From the NCBI GenBank assembly GCA_021730285.1, contig CP082962.1:3038001-3102000 (forward strand): 64,000 bases of DNA. Reading direction: 5' to 3'. A program made the translations under genes and the position numbers. Each line of letters opens with the position of its first letter. Position 1 is the first letter of the stretch. Positions 36,363 through 63,977 of this stretch are shown one piece after another. The DNA is from Desulfovibrio sp. JY. Lineage in GTDB: Bacteria; Desulfobacterota; Desulfovibrionia; Desulfovibrionales; Desulfovibrionaceae. The notes beneath the pieces were generated by a model. The model made no database searches. It had not been told where the DNA came from and worked only from the letters and a program-made list of their open reading frames with translations.

Positions 36363-36971
36363 GTGCACACACCCGAACAGGATGAAGCAGCCCTCGCCAA
36401 GGCCGAGGCCATCCACCAGACTGCCCTGGAAGCCCTGGAACGCAAGGAATTCGATGCCGCCCGGGACGGTTTTCTCAAGGCCCTCGAAGCCTTCCTTTCC
36501 CTGGACGATGCCGTGGGACAGGCCATGAGCCAGCATAACCTGGGATTGACCAGCCAGGAGATGGGTGATTTGGCCAAGGCTCGGGAATGGCTGGAAAAAT
36601 CCCTGGCCATCAGCGAAAAGGAAGAACTCGAAGGCGGCATCACCGTCACCTGCCATCAGCTCGGCGTGGTGGCCCAGATGGCCGAGGACTACCCCAAGGC
36701 CGTCGAATGCTACGAGCGCGCCCTGGCCCTCGAGGAAAAAAGCGGCAACATCGCCGGAGAAGCCAGGACCTGCCACCAGCTCGGTCTCGTCGCCAACTAC
36801 CAGGGCGATCTGGAAGCCGCCAAGGTCTGGTACGCCCGGGCCGTGGCCATCTTCGAGGAACTGGGCGACAAGGAAAACGCCGGCAAGACCAACAAACTGC
36901 TCGATTTTCTCACCGACTTCGAACGCAAGGGCAGCCACGAAGGCCACTCCGGCCCCTGCAGTCACGCCTAG
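36363..36971 (+). CDS. TPR-repeat protein
   Basis: A 202-residue cytoplasmic protein with four consecutive tetratricopeptide units of the TPR_12 type, for example HQLGVVAQMAEDYPKAVECYERALALEEKSGN. Start is GTG, with GGGAGGA upstream. The end is His/Ser-rich (SHEGHSGPCSHA). Probably a protein-interaction scaffold. It is about 90 bases after the ferredoxin gene and followed by a repeat cluster. Confidence 0.82.
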   Translation: MHTPEQDEAALAKAEAIHQTALEALERKEFDAARDGFLKALEAFLSLDDAVGQAMSQHNLGLTSQEMGDLAKAREWLEKSLAISEKEELEGGITVTCHQLGVVAQMAEDYPKAVECYERALALEEKSGNIAGEARTCHQLGLVANYQGDLEAAKVWYARAVAIFEELGDKENAGKTNKLLDFLTDFERKGSHEGHSGPCSHA

Positions 36972-36984
36972 CTGTCGAGCGGCG

Positions 36985-37045
36985 CGAGACTGGGGCTCTG
37001 CCCCAGACCCCGCCGGGAGGCCGAGGGCCCCCCGGGCCCCCCATC
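36985..37045 (+). repeat. Repeat family B element (copy 1)
   Basis: GC-rich hairpin chain beginning 14 bases after the TPR stop: TGGGGCTCTGCCCCA, then GACCCCGCCGGG..., then GGGCCCCCCGGGCCCCCC. Same module order as at 37385-37475 (reverse strand), 51022-51080 and 63058-63150, but without the middle hairpin. It continues with CCGGTGTGCTTTGG, shared with copy 4. Confidence 0.6.
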
Positions 37046-37101
37046 CGGTGTGCTTTGGCTGGGCGGAAGGCTTGGCTGGCGGCGGGGGGGGGGAAGTGCG
37101 G

Positions 37102-37205
37102 AGAAGATGGAGGCGGAATTTGTCGGGACGGTGCATGTCGCTTCGCGACAAGCTCGTCCCAGGCAAATTCCGCCTCCACCACGCCGGTCGCCCCTGCGGG
37201 GCGAC
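37102..37205. repeat. Repeat family C structured element (copy 1)
   Basis: A 104-base element with nested pairing: GGCGGAATTTG with CAAATTCCGCC, GGGACG with CGTCCC, and GTCGC-TTC-GCGAC at the tip, followed by a GTCGCCCC/GGGGCGAC hairpin. A second copy lies at 63198-63300. The two are almost identical, except for a paired change in the outer stem (GAGG...CCTC versus GCGG...CCGC). Confidence 0.75.
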
Positions 37206-37264
37206 ATTCGGAGAACATCTCTTCTTAATTCTCTTAAAATGCGGCGCTTCGCCGCTGGCGTGGT

Positions 37265-37335
37265 TGTTGCCGCAATCGTGTCCGGCGTCGAGGGGCGAAA
37301 GCCCCTCGTGCCGCCGGGCCGATTGCGGCAACAAG
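37265..37335. repeat. Nested 15-bp inverted repeat
   Basis: Arms TTGTTGCCGCAATCG (37265-37279) and its exact reverse complement (37321-37335) enclose CCGGCG/CGCCGG and an inner hairpin GAGGGGC-GAAA-GCCCCTC. The three-tier design resembles family C. No gene overlaps it. Confidence 0.65.
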
Positions 37336-37381
37336 CGTCTGGTCTCCCGCCGTCCCACCGCGCCTTCGCCCGGCAGAGCGT

Positions 37382-37475
37382 GAAGGGGGGACCGGGGGGC
37401 ATCAAGCCCCCCGGCGGTGGGGTGCAGGGGAGGCAGCGCCTCCCCTGCCGGGGTCTGGGGCGGAGCCCCAGCCAG
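37382..37475 (-). repeat. Repeat family B element (copy 2)
   Basis: Read on the minus strand, it starts 13 bases after the DASS stop: GGGGCTCCGCCCC, then GGGGAGGCGCTGCCTCCCC, then CCGGGGGGCTTGATGCCCCCCGG. This is the most complete copy, with all three hairpins. Confidence 0.65.
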
Positions 37476-37487
37476 TGAGTGCGTGCT

Positions 37488-38993
37488 TTATTTCGGTGCG
37501 ATGGCCCAGGCGGGCAGGTGGGACAGGTCGATGCCCCACAGCATCGGCATGAGGTAGAAGGTCATGCAGGTGATGATGAAGATGCCGAAGACATTGAGCC
37601 AGAATCCGGCCTTGCACATCTGTCCTATACTGACGCAGCCGCTGCCGAAGACGACGGCGTTTGGCGGCGTGGCCACGGGCAGCATGAAGGCGAAGGAGGC
37701 GGCCACGCAGGCGCCGATGATGGTGGCGTAGGGGTTGATGCCGAGCGCCACGGCGGCGCTGCCCATGATCGGGATGAGCAGGGTGGCGGTGGCGGTGTTG
37801 GAGGTCAGTTCGGTCATGAAGATGGTGATGGCCACCACGAGCATGACGAACAGCACCGGGGCCATGCCCTGCAGGGTGGACAGGTTGCCGGCGATCCAGT
37901 CGGCCAGGCCGGTCTTGGTGAAGCCGTTGGCGATGGCCAGGCCGCCGCCGAAGAGCAGGATCACGTCCCAGGGGATTTTCACGGCGGTCTTCCAGTCGAG
38001 GAGGAACTTGCCGTTCTTGAAGTCCGTGGGCAGGGCGAAGAGGATCAGCGCGCCGACGATGCCGATGGTGGCGTCGTGGACCATGCTGAGCGCGGGGATT
38101 TTGACGAATCCGCGCACGATCCAGCAAAAGCCCACGAAGCAGCCCACGGCCACGATCCACTTTTCCTCTTTCTTCATGGGGCCAAGCAGTTCGAGCTCGT
38201 GGTCGATGATCTGCTCGCCGCCGGCCAGGGTGAGCTCGCCCATGGGGAACAGGACGCGGGTGAGCAGGTACCAGCAGAAAAGCAGGGTGATGAGCGCCAG
38301 GGGCACGCCGAAGGCCATCCACTGGGCGAAGCCGATGTGCTGGCCGTACATCTTGCCGATCATGGCGACCATGATGACGTTGGGCGGAGTGCCGATGATG
38401 GTGGCCACGCCGCCGATGGAGGCGGCGTAGGCGATGCCGAGCATGAGCGCGGTGCCGAAGTTGTATTCCGGACCCGAGCCGGAGCCGTGCTTGAGGTCAT
38501 GGCCTTCGAAGCCGAAGGCCTGCTGGATGACGGCCAGGCCGATGGGCACCATCATCATGGTGGTGGCGGTGTTGCTCACCCACATGGACAGGAAGGCCGT
38601 TGCCGCCATGAAGCCGAAGATCATGCGGCTTGGGCTCACGCCGACGAGTTTGATGGTCCTGAGCGCGATGCGCCGGTGCAGGTTCCAGCGCTCCATGGTG
38701 ACGGCGATGAAAAAGCCGCCCATGAAGAGGTAGATGAGGTGGTCGGCGTAAGGCGCCGTGGCCGCTTTGGACGGCATGATCTTCAGGAGCGGAAACAGGG
38801 CGATGGGCAGCAAACTGGTGGCCGGAATGGGAATGGCTTCCGTGATCCACCAGATGGCCATCAATGCCGTTACGGCCGCCACGCGTTGGGCTTCCGGCTT
38901 CATGCCCGGCGGCAGCGGCATGAGCAGCAAGATGATGAACACCACGGGGCCAAGGAAGAAACCGACCTTGTTGGCTGTGTGATACTGACGCAC
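37488..38993 (-). CDS. DASS/SLC13-family anion:sodium symporter
   Basis: A 501-residue inner-membrane transporter with about eleven segments and the family's duplicated SNT motifs (MWVSNTATTMMMVPIGLAV and ELTSNTATATLLIPIMG). The C-terminal signature ASFAFMLPVATPPNAVVFGSG and internal ASIGGVATIIGTPPNVIMVAM are intact. Members carry sulfate or C4-dicarboxylates with Na+; in a sulfate reducer either is possible, and the dicarboxylate group seems more likely from the GTPPN motif. It is divergent from a TetR gene with a palindrome between them. Confidence 0.9.
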   Translation of the reverse strand: MRQYHTANKVGFFLGPVVFIILLLMPLPPGMKPEAQRVAAVTALMAIWWITEAIPIPATSLLPIALFPLLKIMPSKAATAPYADHLIYLFMGGFFIAVTMERWNLHRRIALRTIKLVGVSPSRMIFGFMAATAFLSMWVSNTATTMMMVPIGLAVIQQAFGFEGHDLKHGSGSGPEYNFGTALMLGIAYAASIGGVATIIGTPPNVIMVAMIGKMYGQHIGFAQWMAFGVPLALITLLFCWYLLTRVLFPMGELTLAGGEQIIDHELELLGPMKKEEKWIVAVGCFVGFCWIVRGFVKIPALSMVHDATIGIVGALILFALPTDFKNGKFLLDWKTAVKIPWDVILLFGGGLAIANGFTKTGLADWIAGNLSTLQGMAPVLFVMLVVAITIFMTELTSNTATATLLIPIMGSAAVALGINPYATIIGACVAASFAFMLPVATPPNAVVFGSGCVSIGQMCKAGFWLNVFGIFIITCMTFYLMPMLWGIDLSHLPAWAIAPK

Positions 38994-62206: not shown

Positions 62207-63019
62207 ATGGAGAAGCACCCTCGTATCGCATTTCCCCTTGGCCGCTTCTGGCGCTGGCGCGGCCGTGCCGCCCTGGTCGGGGCCGGCTGCCTCGGTTTTG
62301 TTGCCGCCGCGCCCGGCGTGGCCCTGGCCGACCCGCTGACCGGGGGCGTGCTCGGCAGCGTTTTGCGCGGCGACGAGTTCACCGGGCCACGCGTCCTCGA
62401 CCTGCTCGTGATCGGATTGGTCATCTTCCTGCTTCTGCGCCTGCTGCTCGGCCGTTCGCGCCGTTCCGGCCAAGGCCAGTCGCAGCCGCCCTACGACCGC
62501 TCCGGTCCCGCCGAACCCTACGACGCCACGCCGCCGCCGGCTCCCCCGCAACGGGCAAAACGCGACATGTACACCAATGCCCAGGCCACCTGGGATGCCC
62601 TGCGCTCGACGCCATCGGCCAAGACCGCGGCCCAGCCCGCCGGCCAACCCCCCGCAGACGCGACGCCGGACGAGGAATTCCTGGCCGGAGCAAAAATGGC
62701 CTACGGCCGCATTCTCCCCGCCATCGCCAAACGCGATTTCGACGATCTGGCTAATTTCACCACGCCCGGGTTTCTGGCCAACCTCAAAAACAGCCTGCCC
62801 CTGTCGCCGCCGCCCGCGCCGGACATCCTGCTCGTCGAGGCGACCCTGGCCGAACACCGCGAGGAAGGCTCCCAAACCGTCATGGTCGTGGATTACAAAG
62901 TGCTCATCCACGAGAAGGACGCCCCCCACAACACCGACCGCTTCGACCACTGGCGCTTCGTCCGCGACAACGCCTCGCCGGGAGCCAACTGGCTGCTCGA
63001 CGCCATGGAGCAACGCTAG
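62207..63019 (+). CDS. Tim44-like domain membrane protein
   Basis: A 270-residue protein with an N-terminal helix or signal (about 20-42), a second helix (about 64-81, LDLLVIGLVIFLLLRLLL), a Pro-rich linker (95-150), and a Tim44-like C-terminal domain (about 155-268; FLAGAKMAYGRILPAIAKRDFDDLANFTTPGFLANLK, DYKVLIHEKDAPHNTDRFDHWRFVRD...WLLDAMEQ). Bacterial members are poorly known, membrane-linked proteins. It is a single gene, followed by repeats. Confidence 0.83.
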   Translation: MEKHPRIAFPLGRFWRWRGRAALVGAGCLGFVAAAPGVALADPLTGGVLGSVLRGDEFTGPRVLDLLVIGLVIFLLLRLLLGRSRRSGQGQSQPPYDRSGPAEPYDATPPPAPPQRAKRDMYTNAQATWDALRSTPSAKTAAQPAGQPPADATPDEEFLAGAKMAYGRILPAIAKRDFDDLANFTTPGFLANLKNSLPLSPPPAPDILLVEATLAEHREEGSQTVMVVDYKVLIHEKDAPHNTDRFDHWRFVRDNASPGANWLLDAMEQR

Positions 63020-63057: not shown

Positions 63058-63150
63058 GCGGCTGGGGCCCTGCCCCAGGCCCCGGCAGAGGCTCTGCCTC
63101 TGCATTCCGCCGGGGGGCGAGCGCGCCCCCCGTGCCCCCCGTCCGGTGTG
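63058..63150 (+). repeat. Repeat family B element (copy 4)
   Basis: Begins about 40 bases after the Tim44-like stop: CTGGGGCCCTGCCCCAG, then GCAGAGGCTCTGCCTCTGC, then GGGGGGCGAGCGCGCCCCCC. It continues with CCGGTGTGCTTTGG, shared with copy 1. Confidence 0.62.
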
Positions 63151-63197: not shown

Positions 63198-63300
63198 GAG
63201 AAGATGGCGGCGGAATTTGTCGGGACGGTGCATGTCGCTTCGCGACAAGCTCGTCCCAGGCAAATTCCGCCGCCACCACGCCGTCGCCCCTGCGGGGCGA
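63198..63300. repeat. Repeat family C structured element (copy 2)
   Basis: A 103-base copy of the element at 37102-37205, identical except for the compensated outer-stem pair and one single-base deletion near the end. As in copy 1, it directly follows a family B element. Confidence 0.75.
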
Positions 63301-63356: not shown

Positions 63357-63430
63357 GTTAAGAATTTTTGGGGAGGGTGGGGGTCCGGGGGAGGGAACCC
63401 TTTTTTGCAAAAAAGGGTTCCCTCCCCCGG
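63357..63430 (-). repeat. Repeat family A element near mop genes
   Basis: Perfect hairpin CCGGGGGAGGGAACCC... (63385-63430), with flank ACCCCCACCCTCCCC then AAAAATTC on the minus strand. Same orientation relative to the leftward mop genes as other copies relative to their gene. Confidence 0.65.
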
Positions 63431-63515: not shown

Positions 63516-63725
63516 TTAGTCGGTCACGATCATGACGCTGGTGGCCTTGACCATGGCCTTGACCTTGGCGCCGGCCTTGAGGCCCAGGCCTTCGGCGGAT
63601 TCCTTGGTGATCACGGAAACGATCTCGACGCCGGGGGCGGCTTCGATGACGACCTCGGCGTTGACCATGCCGATGGAAACCTTCTTGACGGTGCCGGGGA
63701 TCAGATTGCGAGCGCTGACTTTCAT
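63516..63725 (-). CDS. mop: Molybdate-binding Mop protein (copy 2)
   Basis: A 69-residue single Mop domain (SARNLIPGTVKKVSIGMVNAEVVIEAAPGVEIVSVITKESAEGLGLKAGAKVKAMVKATSVMIV). Such proteins form hexamers that bind molybdate or tungstate and buffer it in the cytoplasm. It differs from the copy at 63768 by two residues (Ala for Ser, Ile for Val). The two genes are about 97% identical in DNA. The short ModC in this window lacks this domain. Confidence 0.93.
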   Translation of the reverse strand: MKVSARNLIPGTVKKVSIGMVNAEVVIEAAPGVEIVSVITKESAEGLGLKAGAKVKAMVKATSVMIVTD

Positions 63726-63767: not shown

Positions 63768-63977
63768 CTAGTCGGTGACGACCATGACGCTGGTGGCCTT
63801 GACCATGGCCTTGACCTTGGAACCGGCCTTGAGGCCCAGGCCTTCGGCGGATTCCTTGGTGATCACGGAAACGATCTCGACGCCGGGAGCGGCTTCGATG
63901 ACGACCTCGGCGTTGACCATGCCGATGGAAACCTTCTTGACGGTGCCGGGGATCAGATTGCGGGCGCTGACTTTCAT
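63768..63977 (-). CDS. mop: Molybdate-binding Mop protein (copy 1)
   Basis: A 69-residue single Mop domain, upstream copy of a tandem pair with 42 bases between genes. AAGGAGAAC precedes the start at 63977. Both copies share the leader segment with its ribosome site, so the duplication unit (about 252 bases) probably includes it. Expected role: molybdate/tungstate storage or homeostasis supporting nitrogenase and molybdoenzymes. Confidence 0.93.
   Translation of the reverse strand: MKVSARNLIPGTVKKVSIGMVNAEVVIEAAPGVEIVSVITKESAEGLGLKAGSKVKAMVKATSVMVVTD

What the first reader, a model, noticed from the sequence alone, without database searches (positions are those of the whole stretch)
37102..37205. 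Structured dispersed element with a compensatory base-pair change
Two copies (37102-37205, 63198-63300) share about 98% of bases. Of the few differences, two are paired: GAGG...CCTC became GCGG...CCGC in the outer stem. This preserved pairing across nested stems argues for selection on a folded RNA or ssDNA, such as a structured RNA, an RNase or protein binding site, or a REPIN-like mobile element.
Basis: seen in the sequence. Interest (0 to 1): 0.7.

Follow-up and report, generated by a model that had tools for sequence, protein, structure and literature searches.

The report
Mirror-image hairpin repeats at gene ends
The repeat is real and belongs to a family of at least 44 DNA palindromes lying behind genes in one group of sulfate-reducing bacteria; the two sides of each palindrome change together, but the evidence points to the DNA copying itself from arm to arm and from copy to copy rather than clearly to selection on an RNA.

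Summary
The two window copies differ by a double change in the outer stem. They are 2 of at least 44 strong copies in the 4.69-Mb genome, and the structure covaries. The family is seen in 13 of 14 genomes of the genus (probably Solidesulfovibrio) and in 0 of 45 others searched.
The hairpin is one module of a roughly 400-500 bp palindromic mosaic behind genes: 26 copies convergent, 18 tandem, none divergent (one corrected by eye). No Y1/RAYT gene reaches the cut-off in this genome.
RNA selection is not shown. G.T and A.C mispairs in the outer stem are equal (8:8). Orientation in tandem gaps is 12:6 (not significant). Stem double changes are 28 transversions to 4 transitions (28:13 with tip and small hairpin).
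Positions are kept (42 of 44 have a counterpart in a close relative), yet sequences are homogenised within subfamilies of a species. Two of 106 distinct copies carry an inverted tip, one beside a normal ortholog.
Best reading: an old REP/BIME-like mosaic repeat whose pairing is renewed largely at DNA level. A function behind genes remains possible. REPIN membership fails on tag, length and transposase.

The parts
36363..36971 (+). upstream gene of copy 1, TPR-repeat protein, ends 131 nt before the element
   Evidence: gene call, distance, Pfam TPR_12 6.5e-22
36990..37006 (.). small GC hairpin CTGGGGC-TCT-GCCCCAG at the start of composite 1
   Evidence: read
37010..37042 (+). L module (CCGCCGGGAGGCC..GGGCCCCCCGG.CCCCCC)
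   Evidence: 72 matches in the genome with up to 3 mismatches; 38 of them beside an H1 copy
37103..37204 (+). copy 1 of the H1 unit (the finding): flank GAAGAT, big hairpin, CCACCACGCC, small hairpin
   Evidence: 125.2 bits
37109..37177 (+). big hairpin H1, about 69 nt, outer 14-bp stem, asymmetric internal loop, inner stem, tip
37188..37204 (+). small hairpin TCGCCCC-NNN-GGGGCGA
37205..37237 (.). AT-rich spacer between the two facing units; such spacers are poorly conserved between orthologs
37238..37340 (-). second, inverted hairpin unit H2 (small hairpin 37241-37255, big hairpin about 37264-37334)
   Evidence: searches (this stretch as query: 40 candidates scored of 96; the model of H1 hits H2 units at other loci on the opposite strand), fold
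37385..37470 (-). right-hand GC-rich module, inverted counterpart of the L module, plus GC hairpins
   Evidence: read; comparison of filled and short sites
37488..38993 (-). downstream convergent gene of copy 1, DASS-type anion symporter
   Evidence: TIGR00785 7.7e-88
62318..63019 (+). upstream gene of copy 2, Tim44-like domain protein
63062..63145 (+). GC hairpins and L-module variant of composite 2
   Evidence: read; too diverged for the 3-mismatch pattern (one search lists it among 6 copies without a match)
63200..63300 (+). copy 2 of the H1 unit (big hairpin 63206-63274, then CCACCACGCC and small hairpin)
   Evidence: 121.7 bits
63358..63430 (.). type B right half: G-run stretch and T-rich 20-bp palindrome, terminator-like
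63516..63725 (-). downstream convergent gene of copy 2, molybdopterin-binding Mop/TOBE protein

Best explanation
Shown: the hairpin is a module of a genus-restricted, palindrome-rich mosaic repeat that sits behind genes, keeps most of its chromosomal positions against a close relative, and is homogenised among copies of a subfamily within a species. Inferred: it is an old, REP/BIME-like repeat that is now hardly mobile in this lineage. Its two arms stay complementary mainly because of DNA processes. One arm is re-copied from the other when replication switches template inside the palindrome, and whole or partial hairpins are overwritten by other copies (ectopic gene conversion). Placement only behind genes is what remains after selection against copies in promoter regions, or reflects a weak role there as a transcript barrier or cruciform.
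For: Copy number and mosaic: 44 strong H1 copies. L module at 72 places, 38 with H1. H2 unit at 40 scored places (capped list), 21 with H1. In 46 element gaps, 22 have H2, 21 the type B half, none both, 3 neither. Gene context: convergent 26 of 46 with element versus 23 of 136 without, Fisher p = 6e-7. Divergent 1 of 46 (a missed small gene, so 0 by eye) versus 54 of 136, p = 2e-7 (background taken near the elements and in the window). No transposase over cut-off here; 8 of 14 genus genomes have Y1_Tnp, and 6 loci examined hold no hairpin match. Positions kept: 42 of 44 copies have a counterpart in G011. Six placements at 5 G000 copies are shared among 21 G003 matches. Homogenised: at those placements cross-species identity is 0.62-0.75, like the mean to other G000 copies (0.64-0.75), while the best other copy within the species is 0.84-0.98. 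DNA-level changes: in the outer and inner stems of 42 ortholog pairs, 28 transversion and 4 transition double changes versus 74:70 in unpaired columns, p = 1e-4. Outer mispairs 8 G.T and 8 A.C. Tip inverted in L158 while its ortholog L033 is normal, and in L197: 2 of 106 distinct parsed copies. In L148 the asymmetric tip seen in L133 of the same genome is replaced by a perfect copy of the 3' arm. Chimeric stems in 2 of 98 copies, L070 and L110. Precedent for template switching making and mending hairpins: PMC8794818 (abstract and discussion).
Against: If the tip and small hairpin are counted too, double changes are 28 transversions to 13 transitions, and the contrast with unpaired columns is no longer significant (p = 0.07); the 7 tip transitions go with swaps between two tip types or within them. 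The length asymmetry of the internal loop is kept in 79 of 96 parsed copies and the loop is perfect in only 11; fast arm copying should have removed it, so some selection for the imperfect shape is possible. Hairpins are better conserved between orthologs (0.92) than the spacer (0.72) or upstream part (0.81), which purifying selection would also give. Within G003 as a whole copies are only 0.75 alike because there are several subfamilies (0.94 within the main one); G003 versus G000 is 0.71, so homogenisation is within subfamilies. In 11 of 16 loci with outer-stem double changes a same-stem donor exists, so conversion and template switching cannot be separated there; 5 have none. Tip inversions are rare. 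Positions shared across species could be insertion hot spots. No experiment or RNA data were available.
Confidence: 0.55

Rival explanations
1. Functional 3' UTR RNA: the hairpin pair caps or stabilises transcripts (or helps termination) and base pairing is kept by purifying selection on the RNA.
For: Always behind at least one gene: 26 convergent, 18 tandem, 0 divergent of 44 (one corrected by eye). Distance from the upstream stop 97-180 nt in the 37 copies called co-oriented. 98.6% of outer-stem cells paired, covariation in 24 of 30 pairs genus-wide. Hairpin better conserved than spacer and upstream part. Internal length asymmetry kept in 79 of 96.
Against: No G.U preference (8:8 in the outer stem; 11 G.T to 22 A.C over outer, inner and small stems, p = 0.08, 10 of the A.C in one column). 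Orientation 12:6 in tandem gaps, p = 0.24. Double changes in the main stems avoid the G.U route (28:4). No U tract behind the big hairpin of the two window copies, and the terminator scan finds nothing on it. No Rfam family at the gathering threshold in the window.
Confidence: 0.25
2. Cruciform or ssDNA site bound by a protein (gyrase, nucleoid protein, nuclease), as proposed for BIMEs (recalled); pairing selected as DNA.
For: Symmetric outer-stem mispair counts. Very stable DNA fold of the whole pair, -98.2 kcal/mol, z = -12.6. Convergent-gene positions, where supercoils collide (established idea, not tested here). Kept positions.
Against: The middle of the stem differs widely between copies of one subfamily in other species, so a sequence-specific site inside the stem is unlikely; a purely shape-reading protein is not excluded.
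Confidence: 0.13
3. Active REPIN/MITE moved by a transposase in trans.
For: Dispersed, palindromic, two facing units in about half of the copies. Of 6 G011 copies whose G000 site was read, 3 G000 sites lack the whole composite. Y1 transposase genes exist in 8 of 14 genus genomes.
Against: No Y1 transposase over cut-off in G000. None of 6 Y1 loci in relatives holds a hairpin match (the loci reach about 1.5 kb either side at most). No transposase among the 25 families shown of 128 in 83 flanking proteins (103 families not shown, 5 of 88 flanking proteins not sent). No plasmid or phage match. 42 of 44 copies have a counterpart in G011. Three of the 6 short sites keep the right module and look like deletions.
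Confidence: 0.07

Closest known systems
REP / BIME mosaics (E. coli, Pseudomonas)
   Same: Dispersed extragenic palindromes combined in mosaics of several modules, two facing units, mostly between convergent or co-directional genes (PMC3733652, passages; PMC8266576, passages).
   Different: Hairpin about 69 nt instead of 20-50, no GTAG tag, no associated TnpA_REP here, extra GC and T-rich modules, homogenisation at kept positions.
CGTC-tagged REPs, mostly of alphaproteobacteria
   Same: Palindromes that apparently lack a dedicated transposase (PMC3733652, passages).
   Different: No unpaired CGTC tag at the stem base in A1, much longer stem, restricted to one genus in the genomes searched.
Template-switch mutations in hairpins (quasipalindrome correction)
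   Same: Multi-base compensatory changes, arm homogenisation and loop inversion (PMC8794818, abstract and discussion; PMC8604942, start of the abstract in a listing).
   Different: Here a dispersed repeat family with many orthologous copies rather than RNA genes or coding sequence.
Intrinsic transcription terminators
   Same: GC-rich hairpins behind genes; the type B half of copy 2 is scored as terminator-like; one short site in G000 carries a plain GC hairpin followed by a T-rich stretch (L165).
   Different: The big hairpin itself has no T tract on either side in the window copies.

Membership tests
REPIN/REP with RAYT | many dispersed extragenic palindromes | tested here: met
   44 strong copies; no called gene overlaps in the 40 rows printed (3 of them weak copies); the downstream gene called at 4303376 overlaps by 9 nt
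REPIN/REP with RAYT | two REP units in inverted orientation | tested here: inconclusive
   H1 and H2 face each other in 21 of 44 copies (22 of 46 gaps); the model of H1 hits 10 H2 units at 56.6-61.3 bits. About half of the copies have a different right side
REPIN/REP with RAYT | GTAG-type tetranucleotide before the stem | tested here: not met
   conserved flank is GAAGAT in all 30 rows of A1
REPIN/REP with RAYT | RAYT (Y1_Tnp) gene in the genome, flanked by the repeats | tested here: not met
   0 over cut-off in G000 (one 12.3-bit hit, E 0.52); 6 Y1 loci of relatives, of 15 matches, without a hairpin match at E <= 1
REPIN/REP with RAYT | length 20-50 nt per palindrome | tested here: not met
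   about 69 nt
CGTC-tagged REP | unpaired CGTC at one end, CCA-like tail | tested here: not met
   flanks GAAGAT and CCACCACGCC; the CCA at the 3' side resembles the tail but the tag is absent
MITE of a DDE transposon | terminal inverted repeats with target-site duplication at clean empty sites | tested here: inconclusive
   6 short sites read by eye: no clean duplication seen; 3 keep part of the composite, and the others keep GC hairpins
intrinsic terminator | GC hairpin followed by a T tract | tested here: not met
   (the two window copies): no terminator-like site on the big hairpin; one palindrome on the type B half of copy 2, and one short site in the L region of copy 1 within shuffle range
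Rfam structured RNA family | score at or above a gathering cut-off | tested here: not met
   0 in the whole window; with E up to 1 only 4 hits, all below cut-off, on 36900-37520
cis-acting structured RNA (general) | covariation with strand-specific G.U tolerance and transcription | tested here: inconclusive
   covariation met; G.U preference not seen; transcription not testable here

The most novel reading that the evidence does not exclude
A genus-wide family of position-keeping palindromes behind genes that renew themselves: both arms are rewritten together by templated DNA synthesis and spread from copy to copy, so that stem sequences become typical of a species and subfamily while outer-stem pairing stays near 98-99%. 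If so, strong covariation can arise and persist without any selection on RNA, and tests for conserved RNA structure will call such DNA repeats false positives. The family would be a ready natural data set, with dozens of ortholog pairs and visible tip inversions, to measure template switching in wild bacteria.
Probability: 0.33. Interest if true: 0.7.

Novelty: new variant of a known kind. Interest (0 to 1): 0.5.

Why it matters
Compensatory base changes are commonly taken as the best comparative proof of a functional RNA. This family shows strong, genus-wide covariation together with several signs that the paired changes come from DNA copying: mostly transversion pairs in the main stems, no strand bias in mispairs, tip inversion, homogenisation at kept sites. 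It is a direct test case for how far covariation can be trusted in repeated palindromes, and a mosaic repeat family that my paper searches did not find described in this group of sulfate reducers.

Tried and rejected
Known RNA family: none at gathering threshold; the relaxed search gave only 4 hits below cut-off, three of them microRNA models. RAYT or other Y1 transposase as partner: none over cut-off here, unlinked in the 6 loci examined in relatives. Autonomous copy: the one gap of about 1.4 kb (465748) holds a 569-aa ORF that my caller missed; it does not look like a transposase to me, but I did not search it against a library. Plasmid or phage origin: no match; the exact pattern is absent from viral contigs. 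Strict 3' UTR element with fixed strand: first looked strong (37 of 44 with a co-oriented upstream gene), but convergent gaps carry no information and the tandem split is 12:6. Replication-strand bias: 24 of 44 co-directional if base 1 is the origin, which I assumed and did not test. The count that the L module is nearly confined to element gaps (45 of 46 versus 1 of 136) rests on a sample around the elements; genome-wide only 38 of 72 are beside H1. Papers: searches listed nothing that names this repeat in Solidesulfovibrio or Desulfovibrio; the library is open-licence PMC only. PMC3116915 was seen in the listing only.

Full report
WHAT WAS CHECKED. The two stretches exist as described. The model built from 30 copies places them at window 37103-37204 and 63200-63300. 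They fold with z-scores near -8; no shuffle of 200 folds as well. The opposite strand of copy 1 folds almost as well (-73.5 kcal/mol), as a palindrome must. The paired difference in the outer stem is real.

HOW MANY. The window is G000:C1:3038001-3102000 of a single-contig 4.69-Mb genome. The model gives 96 matches at E <= 1, with 150 candidates scored. I took the 44 above 80 bits as strong copies. The rest are mostly the same places read on the other strand, plus related H2 units and a few diverged or deleted copies (795002, 589667, 3105347, 1154170). Among 59 genomes (own included), 13 of 14 of the genus have matches and 0 of 45 others (stricter filters, so weak relatives may be missed). A pattern of the alcoholivorans-type stem in 84,980 species genomes hit 15 stretches, in records titled Solidesulfovibrio or Desulfovibrio sp.. 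The window-type pattern hit none there, where the near genome may be left out.

ANATOMY. In the element's own direction: gene stop; GC hairpins such as CTGGGGC-TCT-GCCCCAG; the L module; GAAGAT; the big hairpin (14-bp outer stem, an internal loop mostly with one extra base on the 3' side, inner stem, tip); CCACCACGCC; a small hairpin TCGCCCC-NNN-GGGGCGA; an AT-rich spacer; then one of two right halves. Type A is an inverted second unit H2 with its own small and big hairpin and an inverted GC module. Type B is a G-run stretch with a T-rich palindrome. In 46 element gaps, 22 are type A, 21 type B, none both, 3 neither. Window copy 1 is type A, copy 2 type B. As single-stranded DNA the type A pair folds into two long arms around a stem formed by CCACGCC and GGCGTGG (-98.2 kcal/mol, z = -12.6). 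The modules also occur apart: 72 L modules (38 with H1) and 40 scored H2 places of 96 candidates (21 with H1). This is a mosaic, not a fixed cassette.

GENE CONTEXT. A simple codon-usage gene caller was run on stretches of about 10 kb around the copies. Of 44: 26 convergent, 11 tandem with the upstream gene co-oriented, 6 tandem the other way, 1 called divergent. The last has a small plus-strand ORF that the caller missed, so by eye it is 26 convergent, 12 and 6 tandem, 0 divergent. The upstream stop is 97-180 nt away in the 37 copies called co-oriented. Against 136 gaps of at least 150 bp without the element, from the window and the same stretches (23 convergent, 59 tandem, 54 divergent), convergent is enriched (p = 6e-7) and divergent depleted (p = 2e-7) (the 46 with-element gaps include weak copies). 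The tandem split 12:6 is not significant (p = 0.24).

COVARIATION. In A1 (28 distinct rows) 5 pairs change on both sides; 98.3% of cells are paired against 95.5% in shuffles, 0 of 500 reaching it; the number of further pair types is not above the shuffles. In A2 (104 distinct rows, aligned to the model, so leaning towards it) 18 pairs and 277 cells change on both sides, against 12.2 and 56.6 in shuffles. In A3 (40 rows from 6 genomes, aligned by MAFFT without structure) 24 of 30 predicted pairs have a two-sided change. In other species the middle of the stem can differ widely between copies of one subfamily and still pair, for example L138, L143, L146 and L152 and L194, L195, L198 and L199.

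WHY THIS IS NOT YET EVIDENCE FOR RNA. First, mispairs: in 98 copies of G000 and G011 the outer stem has 8 G.T and 8 A.C cells; inner stem 2 and 10, the 10 all in one column; small hairpin 1 and 4. The tip has 2 and 38, of which 37 come from one column where a bulge shifts, so I left it out. An RNA read from one strand should favour one kind. Second, in 42 ortholog pairs between G000 and G011 the outer and inner stems show 32 Watson-Crick to Watson-Crick double changes and 31 one-sided changes; 28 of the 32 are transversions, against 74 of 144 in unpaired columns (p = 1e-4). With tip and small hairpin the figure is 28 of 41, p = 0.07 against unpaired columns and p = 5e-4 against one-sided stem changes. 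Stepwise change through G.U would favour transitions. Third, in L158 the inside of the hairpin is inverted relative to its ortholog L033, and in L197 relative to its own subfamily: 2 of 106 distinct parsed copies (a regular-expression parse, so copies with odd tips were not counted). Fourth, in L148 the asymmetric tip of its relative L133 has become an exact copy of the other arm, and 11 of 96 copies have a perfected internal loop; two ortholog pairs differ there by combined substitution and deletion (L035 and L090, L051 and L117). Fifth, L070 and L110 carry a 5' arm of one common stem and a 3' arm of another, as expected from partial conversion. Template switching is known to make such changes (PMC8794818, abstract and discussion read).

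POSITIONS KEPT, SEQUENCE HOMOGENISED. G011 is about 91% identical in aligned flanks (stretches mostly 87-95%). 42 of 44 G000 copies have a counterpart in collinear sequence, a few at contig ends with one flank only; the sites of the other two (L038, L043) were not found among the G011 stretches fetched. Of 54 G011 copies in A2, 12 have no matched G000 copy. Six of these sites were read in G000: three lack the whole composite though GC hairpins remain, three keep the right module and look like deletions; two more were unresolved and four not examined. Hairpin identity is 0.92 between orthologs, 0.86 between non-orthologs of the two genomes, 0.88 within G000; the ortholog is the best or tied match in 18 of 42 for the hairpin and 19 of 42 for the spacer. 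Against G003, 6 placements at 5 G000 copies are shared out of 21 G003 matches, 3 of which are H2-like; the flanking proteins there are 73-92% identical. At these the cross-species identity is 0.62-0.75, no higher than the mean to other G000 copies, while within each species the best other copy reaches 0.84-0.98. G003 holds several subfamilies: 0.94 within the main one, 0.75 over all. In five species, 10 of 30 loci lie beside orthologs of genes flanking G000 elements by my reading. Inheritance with concerted evolution fits best; repeated insertion at hot spots is not excluded.

AGAINST MY READING. The internal length asymmetry is kept in 79 of 96 copies, which fast arm copying should erase. Hairpins are better conserved than spacer and upstream part, as selection would also cause. 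The transversion excess weakens when tip and small hairpin are included. In 11 of 16 loci with outer-stem double changes a donor with the same stem exists, so simple conversion is enough; 5 have none. No expression data exist here.

MOBILITY. No Y1 transposase above cut-off in G000 (best 12.3 bits, E 0.52); 8 of 14 genus genomes have one or more, 6 of the 15 matches with a stop inside. Six such loci held no hairpin match. No plasmid or phage match. Among 83 of 88 flanking proteins no transposase family appears in the 25 families shown of 128.

VERDICT. Observation confirmed, interpretation partly supported. It works like a REP/BIME-type mosaic repeat, but strict REPIN membership fails on tag, length and transposase. 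The structural signal is best explained by DNA-level renewal of palindromes, with a role behind genes still open.

Noticed in passing
63516-63725 and 63768-63977 (minus strand): Two adjacent, closely similar 69-aa molybdopterin-binding (Mop/TOBE) genes, apparently a tandem duplication.
   Followed up: partly
63385-63430: T-rich 20-bp palindrome with a G-run stretch before it (four or more runs of three or more G); the same type B half occurs in 21 of 46 element gaps and looks terminator-like.
   Followed up: partly
L165 (G000 4000513-4000600): Short site matching the composite-bearing G011 locus L101: only a plain GC hairpin followed by a T-rich stretch, as if the composite sat inside an older terminator.
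   Followed up: partly
L164:3951-4016 and L077:5001-5045: Collapsed copies in which the inner stem is missing but the remaining stem is still paired.
   Followed up: no
L124, L129, L134, L128, L148, L153: In two fragmented relatives (G009, G001) these six copies lie within about 300 bases of the start of a contig, so the palindromes seem to break assemblies and copy counts there are lower bounds.
   Followed up: no
L118-L123: Y1-type transposase genes in sister species; one of these six (L123) has a stop inside, as do 6 of all 15 matches; none of the six loci holds a hairpin match.
   Followed up: partly
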